Shown here: one piece after another, positions 17,221 to 33,043 of the stretch
Numbering within the stretch: position 1 is the stretch's first letter
Layout: each line of letters opens with the position of its first letter
Assembly: GCA_030770425.1 (NCBI GenBank)
Contig: JASJFT010000027.1
Location: 267,533-331,532, forward strand
Direction of reading: 5' to 3'
Source of the DNA: Darksidea phi
Taxonomy: Eukaryota > Ascomycota > Dothideomycetes > Pleosporales > Lentitheciaceae
DNA length: 64,000 bases
Position numbers and translations under genes: made by a program
The notes under the pieces: generated by a model
Told to the model about the DNA's origin: nothing
Seen by the model: only the letters and a program-made list of their open reading frames with translations
The model's database searches: none

Positions 17221-18277
17221 TTATTCCTTTTTCAGCGCATCTCCCCTGCACAAACTCTCCATCCATCTCCGATGCGATGGCCAAAGCACCCAGCCCATCA
17301 AAAACGCAAGCACCGAATCCACAATCCCCCATCCCCTACTTGGACTTGTCCCCATCATATTTGCCCAGAGCAACTGTACGTTAGCTCCCTTATCCATAAC
17401 CGCAAAATCACCCTGCCCCGCCGCCTTCACAATCTGACCCGCTATCTTCTCGGCTGTTGGATATCTTTTGGCCAATTCGGCGGGGTCGCCGAGCGAGGAT
17501 TCAAACTTCTTCGTTAATTCAGGCCTATATTTTTGTGTCTGGAACGCGGCGTCGGTTATGAAGATGTGCGTGAAGACGATCTGGACCTTGTACTCTGATA
17601 TAGGTCCAGAGTATCTCATGGCTTCAAGTCTGAGGAGCTCGGCGAGGGAGCGTTGTGCGGCTTTGGCAGCTTCTCAAAAACCAGCTCAAGATCCCGAAAC
17701 CTCTCATATATATATACATACGTGAATAAGCAGCATAACCCGGTGTGGGCGCAGGTGCTAAGGCGCTGTTGGTAAAGATAATCTTCCTCTCTCTCGGGCG
17801 TGCCGGTACTTGAGCGTCCTTGTCATCCTCGGTCCACATCTTGGGCATTAGGAAGTCAATCTCATTCGGGCTGCCGCCTGCTACGCAGTAGAAGATGTTG
17901 GGGAGTTGCCCTGCCGAGCTGAACCCTGAGCGAATGTTTGCTGCAACCGACATATCCGCAGCTACGACCATGACAGTTTGGCTCTCATCTTGTCTTGCAG
18001 CGAGGATCTCTTCTTAGTTTCGTTGAGGGCGGTCTGCCTACGGGCGAAGATGACGATATGAGCGCCTGGCTTAGTCAGTAAGTGTGTAATTGGCGAAGGG
18101 TAATTTGATGCCTTGAGATGCCAGAACTTTGGCTATTTCCTTTCCTAGCCCCGCCGAAGCTTCAATGACAAAGACGGTCTAAGTCGCGTTAGTGAAAGGC
18201 GAATTGCTGAACACTCCTTGGTGGAGGAATGAGACTCAAGCAATGTACCTTGCCCGGAGGTCTTTGAGGCCTGTCAT
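17221..18277 (-). pseudogene. 3-ketodihydrosphingosine reductase-like SDR (Tsc10/Fum13/SphF type), disrupted
   Basis: Short-chain dehydrogenase of the KDS-reductase family, which in sphingolipid or sphinganine-analogue synthesis reduces the 3-keto group with NADPH at the ER. Recognisable are GLGKEIAKVLASQG, HIVIFARRQTALNE, FYCVAGGSP, the catalytic YxxxK (YSPAK, formed across an intron 17721-17670) and the C-terminal membrane segment GIVDSVLAFLMGWVLWPSHRRW. The breaks are: the cofactor loop reads VIEASAGLG where TGxxxGxG is expected (two transitions would explain it); one base appears missing near 18015, shifting the frame; the first exon at 18277 does not join in phase; an intron near 18105 has a GC rather than GT donor; and about 25-30 residues usual between the Asn region and WTEDD are absent. 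It lies 3' of the MFS gene on the same strand, at the edge of the PKS cluster. Confidence 0.75.
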
Positions 18278-18563
18278 CTTGGCAAGCGTTTTCGATCTGC
18301 TTGCGAAATCACAGAGCGAATAATCCGAGGGGGTGAGCTTGCTCGAAGGATTGTGCTTCTTGTTTGGGAGGTCCAGGTACTTGTGTCCCGCTGTGCCGCA
18401 CGCATGGTCGGCTTATCTGCAGGTGCCTTTTAGGTGTGACCAACGCAGCCACGCGACTTGGTGCGGAAACCGTAGGCATTTGCATTTAGGCTGGAAAGGA
18501 ATGTACTCTCAGACTATGTCTTAATTATGTGCTATCTAGAATGGGAGCCCACGCGAAGGTGGT
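18278..18563. other. intergenic spacer
   Basis: Promoter-side flank of the reductase pseudogene and 3' flank of the MFS gene. Nothing else seen. Confidence 0.4.
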
Positions 18564-30800: not shown

Positions 30801-33043
30801 GCTCGACATAGGAAGCACAGGCTCCTTCGAAACACTTCAATTCGTAGAGGACATGGAACACCACAACGAACTTGATCCAGAGGATATAGAGATCGAGGCC
30901 AGAGCATGGGGTCTCAGCTTCAGGGATCTCTTCCTTGCTCTGGGTCGTTTGGAAGAAGTAGGATTCGGAGCCGACTGTGCTGGTATAGTCACAAGAGTCG
31001 GTCCAAATTGTCGAGAAACCGTGAAGCCTGGAGACCGTGTTTGTATGGCCGCAGTGGGCTGTATACGAACATTCCCGAGAACGAACTACCGATATGTCAT
31101 CAAAATCCCAGACACCATGTCCTTTGAGGAAGGAAGCGCAATCTTGAACCCCGGTATGACGGCGTACCACTCTTTGATCGAGGTAGCTCGGCTCCAAGAA
31201 GGCGAAAAAGTTCTTATCCATGCTGCAGCGGGTGCAACAGGGCAACTAGCCATTCTTGTTGCGCAAAGTGTCGGGGCCGAGGTGTTTGCAACAGTTGGGT
31301 TCAATGAAAAGAAAGAGATCCTTCAGCAGAATTTCGGGATCCCTACTGATCACATCTTCTACAGTCGAAACGCTAGTTTCAAGAAAGGCATTATGCGGGT
31401 GACAAAGGGCTACGGCGTTGACGTCGTCTTAAATTCACTTGTAGGCGACGGGCTGCAAGCTTCCTTAGAGTGTGTCGCTCCATATGGAAGGTTTGTCGAG
31501 CTTGGGAAGGCTGATATCAAAGCCAATTCGTCGTTGCCGATGGCATGTTTTGCGAACAATGTCTCCTTTGCTGCAGTCGATCTCCGGCACATCTATTACT
31601 TCCGCAGAGATGCTGGTTATCGATTGATCACCAAAACAATGGAGCTATTCAAGGACGGAACCCTTCGATGCCCTCAACCTCTGCACATCTACCCTGTTTC
31701 ATCGATCGAGGAGGCGTTCCGATACTTCCAAAGTGGGAAGAATACTGGACGTATAATCATCACAGCAGGCCCAGGCGACACCATCCGGGTAAGTCAGTAA
31801 TTCCAAATGAGGTAACATTCCTATTCTTACATTCGCCAGAAATGCATAGTTTACCGACATCTATGGAAATTCCACGACGGAGCCACGTATGTGATTGTAG
31901 GCGGTCTAGGTGGCCTCGGGAGAGCGATGATCACATGGATGGTCTCCAAAGGGGCCAAGCATTTTATACTTCTGTCGAGATCTGGAGCCGAGTCTAAAGC
32001 TGGCCAGGAACTATTGAGTGGATTGACAGAGCAAGGCGTGGTCGTTGCAGTGGAGAAATGCGATGCCTCTTCAGCAGATCAGCTATCCGAGGCACTGAAG
32101 AAAAGTGGAGAGATGATGCCGCCTATCCGTGGATGCATCAACGCAGCCATGGAGTTAAATGTCAGTATCAAGCCCCACGAACACGATATACAGACCTCTA
32201 ATCAGCTGACAGGACTCGCTCTTCGAGAATATGACGTATATGCAATGGGAGAGAACGATTCGATCGAAATGCCACACTTCTTGGAATTTGCATAATCTTC
32301 TTCCACGCGATCTAGATTTCTTCATCCTCTTGTCCTCTCTGACAGCTGTCCTTGGCAACCCAGGTCAATCAAACTACTCCGCCGGATGTGCATTCCAGGA
32401 CGCCTTGGCGCGATATCGCACGTACAACAACCAAAAGGCTCTATCTATCAACCTCGGTTTAATGCGAACCATCGGCGCAGTCGCCGAGAACAAGAACCTA
32501 CACCGTAATTTCAAAGTTGCGAGCCTTCGACCAATAGAGGAGGTGGAGTTTTTGACACTTCTCGATATGTACTGCGATCCTGGCCACCCTGTCCTACAGC
32601 CCGATAAGAGCCAAATCGCGATCGGCATCATGACGCCGGCAGATGTTCTGGCCAAGAACCGTGAACCCGACGAGCTCCTACACCGGCCGTTATTTGCGAG
32701 CTTCTCCCGGAGCCGCGGTGCCTCCCAGCAGGCCGGATCGGAAAGCAGTACGAATTACACGGCTCTGTTCCGACAGGCTGAGTCTGACGAAGGGAAGATC
32801 GCAATCGTTATTGAAGCATTGGCACGAAAGCTAGCGCGTGCGCTATCTATCTCACCAGACGAGGTTGAGTTAGATAAGCCTCTGTATAGTTTTGGCGTCG
32901 ATTCACTGGTTGCGGTTGAATTGAAGAATTGGATCCGTAAGGAGTTTGCGGCGGAAGTTGCGGTCTTTGATATAATGGGCGGGACCACAGTCGAGATGGT
33001 GGGGGGAATCGTCACGAAGGCGAGCAAAATGAGAGGAGGGTAA
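24824..33043 (+). CDS. highly reducing type I polyketide synthase (KS-AT-DH-MT-ER-KR-ACP)
   Basis: Iterative PKS. Ten exons fit: 24824-24994, 25050-25194, 25248-25516, 25567-25780, 25831-26050, 26106-26262, 26310-27069, 27116-31788, 31840-32160 and 32213-33043. The sum is 7,761 nt, 2,586 aa, with no interruption. KS: Cys in NTACSTSM (about 171), His in EAHGTGT (307) and NIGH (about 347). AT: GQGAQY, GHSSGE (686). DH: DHVVGDTPLYP (1017), whose Gly is displaced from the usual HxxxGxxxxP. MT: EVGAGTG (about 1480). ER: HAAAGATGQ (about 2013). KR: GGLGGLG (2224), Ser and Tyr present, but Cys where YxxxN expects Asn. ACP: GVDSL (2539). There is no thioesterase, so another protein must release the chain; the neighbouring oxoamine synthase is the obvious candidate. 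Architecture matches the PKSs of sphinganine-analogue pathways but also many others. Confidence 0.95.

What the first reader, a model, noticed from the sequence alone, without database searches (positions are those of the whole stretch)
17221..33043. Candidate sphinganine-analogue-type gene cluster: reducing PKS, oxoamine synthase, KDS-reductase relic, MFS exporter
Seen: an intact KS-AT-DH-MT-ER-KR-ACP synthase without thioesterase, an AONS-type PLP enzyme, a 3-ketodihydrosphingosine reductase-like gene, an MFS transporter and a rhodopsin-domain membrane protein in 16 kb. Known: fumonisin, AAL-toxin and sphingofungin pathways use a reducing PKS, an alpha-oxoamine synthase and a KDS-reductase homologue (Fum1/Fum8/Fum13; the Sph proteins). 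Inference: this locus makes, or once made, an amino-polyketide of that kind. It lacks visible P450s, ceramide synthases and a regulator, so it would be a minimal or partly scattered version and may be undescribed.
Basis: partly seen in the sequence, partly recalled or inferred. Interest (0 to 1): 0.85.

Follow-up and report, generated by a model that had tools for sequence, protein, structure and literature searches.

The report
Fungal amino-polyketide gene cluster
This stretch of a fungal genome holds a polyketide synthase paired with an enzyme related to the one that joins a carbon chain to an amino acid in the sphingofungin pathway; the pairing recurs in other fungi, and the locus looks like an uncharacterised member of a known kind whose reductase gene has decayed.

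Summary
Window 18564-33043 carries an open nine-intron highly reducing PKS (2586 aa, KS-AT-DH-MT-ER-KR-ACP, no thioesterase found), an open 480-aa alpha-oxoamine synthase (AOS), an MFS exporter and a rhodopsin-domain membrane protein. Pieces at 17.2-18.4 kb resemble a 3-ketodihydrosphingosine reductase but are broken. The AOS is not biotin AONS: its best solved relative is SphA of sphingofungin biosynthesis (51% identity, 540 bits), while every AONS, ALAS, SPT or KBL of confirmed kind scores 126 bits or less. The pairing is not accidental. In this genome four of the five genes that align with SphA at 39% identity or more sit within 3 kb of a ketosynthase, and one locus (C412) repeats AOS, PKS, MFS and rhodopsin gene. 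In the protein database 25 of the 120 listed AOS hits share species and contig length with one of the 120 listed PKS hits, and AOS and PKS distances agree (Mantel r 0.72, p 0.0001). The locus most likely makes an alpha-amino-ketone polyketide by PLP-dependent chain release. Whether that becomes a true sphinganine analogue is open: the reductase is broken, no P450 was seen nearby, and the AOS may lie beside, not in, the SphA clade. Verdict: new member of a known kind.

The parts
24824..33043 (+). Highly reducing PKS, KS-AT-DH-MT-ER-KR-ACP, 2586 aa, nine introns, no thioesterase found
20921..22473 (-). SphA-like alpha-oxoamine synthase, 480 aa; exons 22473-21624, 21566-21424, 21370-20921; Ser101 at the ALAS-83 position, Lys277 the PLP lysine by alignment
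18564..20260 (-). DHA2-like MFS exporter, 547 aa, intron 20074-20022
   Evidence: relatives beside PKS-AOS at C412 and C401
23007..24302 (-). Fungal rhodopsin-domain membrane protein, 395 aa, introns 23927-23877 and 23493-23437
   Evidence: relative at C412
17221..18400 (-). Broken 3-ketodihydrosphingosine-reductase-like gene (pieces in separate frames, cofactor motif altered)
   Evidence: read by eye

Best explanation
A PKS-AOS biosynthetic cluster of the sphingofungin/SAM type. The PKS builds a reduced, probably C-methylated chain and holds it on its ACP, having no thioesterase. The PLP-dependent AOS makes a carbanion from a small amino acid (alanine or a relative, judged from Ser101), attacks the acyl chain, loses CO2 and so releases an alpha-amino ketone. 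The MFS protein exports the product. A reductase related to 3-ketodihydrosphingosine reductase once gave the 3-hydroxy, sphinganine-like form; it is now broken, so either a reductase encoded elsewhere does that step or the product stays an amino ketone. Shown here: gene content, open frames, motifs, AOS kinship, conserved linkage and agreeing distances of AOS and PKS. Inferred: chain release by the AOS, the amino acid, export, the end product.
For: Best solved match SphA at 540 bits, all but one further chain at 126 bits or less; 51% identity over 459 residues. Open PKS and AOS with catalytic residues. Four of five SphA-like genes of this genome lie within 3 kb of a KS; C412 repeats AOS, PKS, MFS and rhodopsin gene. 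25 of 120 AOS hits share species and contig length with a PKS hit, two pairs with consecutive locus tags. Mantel r 0.72, p 0.0001, 29 pairs. Chain release by AOS in fumonisin and sphingofungin pathways: PMC4936691 and PMC10936153, passages.
Against: Broken reductase; no P450, regulator or ceramide synthase seen among the window queries scanned. The C401 and C434 PKSs belong to a different PKS lineage from the window's, so AOS and PKS are not always inherited as one block. 95 of the 120 AOS hits have no contig-length match among the 120 listed PKS hits. No expression or product data.
Confidence: 0.72

Rival explanations
1. The product is not a sphinganine analogue: without the reductase the alpha-amino ketone stays as such, or cyclises or is tailored into a polyketide alkaloid.
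For: The reductase is broken; no reductase-like match to the window pieces was found in the fetched stretches of C412, C401 or C434; the AOS lies in a clade separate from SphA's in the free tree.
Against: A related reductase exists on C9 and cluster reductases can stand in for the housekeeping one (PMC10936153, passages), so the step could be done in trans. 17 of the 43 non-Fusarium SAM-type clusters of Kim et al. had no SDR gene and were still listed. The AU test does not exclude the SphA clade.
Confidence: 0.35
2. The cluster is decaying and makes nothing now; the reductase was the first gene to go.
For: Broken reductase; no P450 or regulator seen among the window queries scanned.
Against: PKS, AOS, MFS and rhodopsin genes are all open with catalytic residues kept. 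At C412 too no match to the reductase pieces was found, so lack of it need not mean death.
Confidence: 0.15
3. The AOS is the biotin enzyme (AONS) and lies beside the PKS by chance.
For: NCBIfam ranks bioF first.
Against: 226 bits against a cut-off of 426; SphA at 540 bits against 104 for E. coli AONS 1bs0; repeated linkage with PKS.
Confidence: 0.02

Closest known systems
Sphingofungin cluster (SphA AOS, SphB PKS, SphF reductase), Aspergillus fumigatus
   Same: AOS 49-51% identical to the two SphA-type chains in the PDB, a PKS without thioesterase, an MFS transporter, a KDSR-like reductase
   Different: Here the reductase is broken and no P450, acetyltransferase or regulator was seen among the queries scanned; the free tree puts the AOS in another clade, though the AU test is inconclusive
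SAM1-SAM5 clusters of Kim et al. 2020 (PMC7376913)
   Same: PKS, class II aminotransferase with serine at the ALAS-83 position as in SAM1 and SAM2, and an SDR-like gene
   Different: The SDR is broken; orthology to any one SAM group could not be tested because their sequences were not at hand
Pseudocercospora (Mycosphaerella) fijiensis PKS8-2 cluster (PMC4936691)
   Same: PKS of the same domain order, AOS, MFS transporter, ketosphinganine reductase
   Different: There the reductase is annotated and expressed, and a sphingolipid hydroxylase and a transcription factor are present
Fumonisin and AAL-toxin clusters (Fum1/Fum8/Fum13, Alt1/Alt4)
   Same: Same chemical logic: PKS without thioesterase, AOS, KDSR-type reductase
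   Different: Fum8 is much longer (substrate residue at 580 against 101 here); the P450 and ceramide synthase genes of fumonisin were not seen here

Membership tests
SAM-type cluster (Kim et al. 2020) | Highly reducing PKS for a linear chain | tested here: met
SAM-type cluster (Kim et al. 2020) | Class II aminotransferase (AOS) within a few genes of the PKS | tested here: met
SAM-type cluster (Kim et al. 2020) | SDR gene for the 3-keto reduction, working | tested here: not met
   Only broken pieces. Kim et al. list 17 of 43 non-Fusarium clusters without an SDR gene, so this lowers the claim without closing it
SAM-type cluster (Kim et al. 2020) | PKS in reducing PKS clade III with Fum1 | not tested
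   No Fum1, Alt1 or SphB sequence was at hand; the KS search was swamped by bacterial synthases
SAM-type cluster (Kim et al. 2020) | Product is a sphinganine analogue | not testable with these tools
   needs chemistry
Sphingofungin (SphA) AOS clade | AOS falls inside the clade that holds SphA | tested here: inconclusive
   Free tree: in a separate 59-row clade, SH-aLRT 100; a tree joining it to the SphA clade is not rejected, p-AU 0.16
Fum8-type AOS | Long N-terminal part before the AOS domain | tested here: not met
   480 aa, substrate residue at 101 against 580 in Fum8
Biotin AONS (BioF) | Score above the NCBIfam bioF cut-off | tested here: not met
   226 of 426 bits
ALAS or serine palmitoyltransferase | Score above the NCBIfam equivalog cut-offs | tested here: not met
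   ALAS 152 of 339, SPT 157 of 500 bits; the ALAS of this genome is at C79 with 587 bits

The most novel reading that the evidence does not exclude
The locus belongs to a broad PKS-AOS lineage beside SphA's, seen in Xylariales, Pleosporales and a few other fungi, that works without its own ketoreductase and makes amino-ketone polyketides, or alkaloids formed from them, not yet linked to any gene cluster, with the rhodopsin-domain protein as a cluster-specific membrane part.
Probability: 0.3. Interest if true: 0.62.

Novelty: new member of a known kind. Interest (0 to 1): 0.42.

Why it matters
Fungal PKSs without a thioesterase need a partner to release the chain. This locus, its relatives in the same genome and 25 linked AOS-PKS pairs elsewhere suggest that release by an AOS is a common, long-inherited solution and not confined to the few characterised toxin pathways. 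It points chemists to a clade that may hold compounds touching sphingolipid metabolism, and offers a natural case of a cluster that has lost its reductase.

Tried and rejected
Biotin AONS, ALAS and SPT identities were tested and rejected. A KS-only search of the protein database was of no use: multi-KS synthases, bacterial where named, filled the best 120, so residues 900-1460 were used instead. Four PKS hits carry an N-terminal AOS (P0257, P0259, P0304, P0353) and first looked like true fusions; three lack most of the KS start at the join and the fourth part of it, so merging of two neighbouring genes by annotation is likelier; I count them only as a hint of adjacency. The AU test does not support a firm claim that the AOS lies outside the SphA clade. 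The first tree has long outgroup branches that the program warns about; I rely on the 59-row split, found again without four of the long rows. The Pfam aminotransferase search of the genome scored only 9 of 34 candidates and was not used. P450s could not be excluded for the whole contig, since only 92 of 375 candidates were scored. TLC/ceramide-synthase-like genes lie at four loci, none on C190, C412, C401 or C434. Paper searches for fungal AOS alkaloid clusters gave nothing usable, one for SphA as an aminoacyl transferase gave no paper, and one for sphinganine analogues with lichens gave three unrelated or already known papers.

Full report
What is there. The window lies in a 51.35 Mb fungal genome of 477 contigs, at G000:C190:267533-331532. 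On the + strand a PKS gene runs from an ATG at 24824 to the stop at 33043 with nine GT-AG introns of 46-55 bases and gives 2586 residues without an internal stop. Pfam finds AT, DH, MT and ER on the large exon and KR and ACP on the last ones; KS exons are found by the KS family search. The KS cysteine and both histidines, the AT serine, the cMT, ER and KR glycine motifs, the KR tyrosine and the ACP serine are present; the DH histidine and aspartate are the same in 73 of 73 aligned rows. On the - strand lie the AOS (22473-20921, 480 aa, two introns), an MFS exporter (20260-18564, 547 aa) and a fungal rhodopsin-domain protein (24302-23007, 395 aa). AOS and PKS are divergent, with the rhodopsin gene between them.

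The reductase. Between about 18.4 and 17.2 kb on the - strand there are pieces that resemble a 3-ketodihydrosphingosine reductase. Adjoining pieces lie in different frames with no room for an intron, and the cofactor motif has lost its first glycine (read by eye). Searched apart, the C-terminal piece finds in the rest of the genome only two places on contig C9, one 47% identical over 137 residues, the other 38% with a stop inside; the middle piece finds the first of these again, 56% over 43 residues. Two open frames of this stretch gave no Pfam match at E 0.01, so the name of the enzyme rests on similarity read by eye and on recall of the family. I take it as broken in this assembly and propose no repair.

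What the AOS is. Against solved structures the best match is 9pep, 'Aminoacyl transferase sphA', 540 bits, then 9dos, labelled 8-amino-7-oxononanoate synthase, 515 bits; the next of the 54 listed has 126 bits. The 9pep chain is 98.7% identical to a Paecilomyces variotii protein (P0087) and 9dos 98.0% to an Aspergillus udagawae protein (P0107), so 9dos is probably also a SphA in spite of its label (inference). The window AOS is 51% identical to 9pep over 459 residues. NCBIfam places it nearest to bioF, but at 226 bits against a cut-off of 426. Lys277, Asp243 and His246 line up with the same residues of SphA; that they are the PLP-binding ones is recalled. The residue at the ALAS-83 position is Ser101, as in SphA (my reading). 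Kim et al. (PMC7376913; abstract and sections 5, 8, 9, 15 and 20 read) predict alanine for such a serine, but SphA uses aminomalonate (PMC10936153, passages), so the amino acid is not settled.

Why the pairing is real. In the same genome the bioF family finds 14 matches at nine loci. C190 (the window), C401, C412 and C434 each have a KS hit within 3 kb. The others are an ALAS (C79), an SPT/KBL-like gene (C46), a threonine-aldolase-like gene (C90), an SPT- or bioF-like gene (C379) and C451; none of these five has a KS hit within 100 kb. Measured against SphA the five closest are the window (51%), C401 (50%), C434 (44%), C412 (44%) and C451 (39%): four of five stand beside a PKS. C412 repeats the window's set: AOS 47%, PKS 43-67% by segment, MFS 54-77%, rhodopsin protein 38-42%, with an alcohol-acetyltransferase-like gene between the last two and an O-methyltransferase gene farther off. 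C401 shares AOS (41-51%) and MFS (46-60%) but has, like C434, a PKS of another lineage.

In the protein database (5.77 billion sequences) the AOS finds 1734 proteins, 120 listed, and PKS residues 900-1460 find 320, 120 listed. Two pairs have consecutive locus tags (Monosporascus DL771_007287/007288, Truncatella TruAng_005707/005708), and eight pairs lie on contigs of 58-188 kb. AOS and PKS tree distances correlate over 29 pairs (Mantel r 0.72, p 0.0001; the 25 outside pairs alone r 0.68, p 0.0001). Vertical descent of a linked pair would give this; it shows joint inheritance, not function.

Where it sits. In a 133-row tree the window AOS is the first branch of a 59-row clade (SH-aLRT 100) that holds 24 of the 25 PKS-linked AOSs and the C412 copy; the 43-row clade with P0087 and P0107, the near-copies of the two SphA chains, holds none of the 25; the last, P0108, stands near C434 (counted by hand). 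With both SphA chains added and four long rows removed the 59-row split stays at 100, but a tree that joins the window AOS to the SphA clade is not rejected (p-AU 0.16, log-likelihood 31.6 lower). So I call it SphA-like, probably of a sister lineage. Fum8 carries the same substrate position at residue 580, so the window AOS lacks Fum8's long N-terminal part.

How it works. The PKS has no thioesterase, as stated for Fum1 and Alt1 (PMC4936691, passages) and SphB (PMC10936153, passages). In those systems the AOS condenses the chain with an amino acid and so frees it. From the kinship of the AOS, the open PKS and the conserved linkage the same is inferred here. The reductase that would give the 3-hydroxyl is broken, so either a reductase encoded elsewhere serves or an amino ketone is the product. 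Of the 43 non-Fusarium clusters of Kim et al. only 26 had the SDR gene, so its absence is not unusual.

What is missing. No P450, ceramide synthase or cluster-type regulator was found among the 30 window queries given to Pfam (not every ORF). A C2H2 zinc-finger gene lies 10.5 kb beyond the PKS (43545-45368) with nothing to tie it to the cluster. The genome-wide P450 search shows none on C190 but scored only 92 of 375 candidates; zinc-cluster matches on C190 lie more than 110 kb away (150 of 230 candidates scored).

Known or new. Papers seen: PMC7376913 (sections named above), PMC4936691, PMC5561558 and PMC10936153 (passages); others only as search listings. PMC5561558 reports a Fum1-like PKS locus in Zymoseptoria tritici without a Fum8 homologue, a reminder that PKS likeness alone does not make a SAM cluster. 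I saw no characterised product for the 59-row clade in these searches, but the library lacks most subscription journals and the additional files of Kim et al. could not be read. The kind of cluster is known; this locus is a new member whose reductase is lost. Its interest lies in the breadth of the lineage and in four PKS-AOS loci in one genome.

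Noticed in passing
window 58000-64000, with 55772-57413: An AT-rich block (27-29% GC) behind a Tc1/mariner-like transposase ORF (56445-57413 +) and a 59-base tandem repeat (55772-56156).
   Followed up: no
window 6001-8000: GC 66% against about 50% around, with long open frames on both strands; two of them had no Pfam match.
   Followed up: no
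window 511-1437 -: NPHP3_N/NACHT NTPase domain, an NLR-like gene.
   Followed up: no
G000:C412:34122-60000 (L021-L023): A second PKS-AOS cluster with MFS and rhodopsin gene; its AOS and PKS are both nearest to the linked pairs of Massariosphaeria (P0077/P0285) and Phaeosphaeriaceae (P0091/P0292), with an alcohol-acetyltransferase-like gene added.
   Followed up: partly
G000:C434:90995-112600 (L024-L026): PKS-AOS pair with an ATP-grasp gene, a 2OG-Fe(II) oxygenase and a multicopper oxidase within about 20 kb, and one SDR-like glycine motif.
   Followed up: partly
G000:C401:67500-102700 (L027-L030): PKS-AOS pair and MFS with P450s, an af470-like monooxygenase, a DMATS prenyltransferase and a class IV aminotransferase on the fetched stretches.
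   Followed up: partly
database proteins P0257, P0259, P0304, P0353: PKS models with an N-terminal AOS 47-56% identical to the window AOS, probably two neighbouring genes merged by annotation, possibly true fusions.
   Followed up: partly
G000:C9:84389-91792: Two 3-ketodihydrosphingosine-reductase-like places 7 kb apart, one with a stop inside the match.
   Followed up: partly
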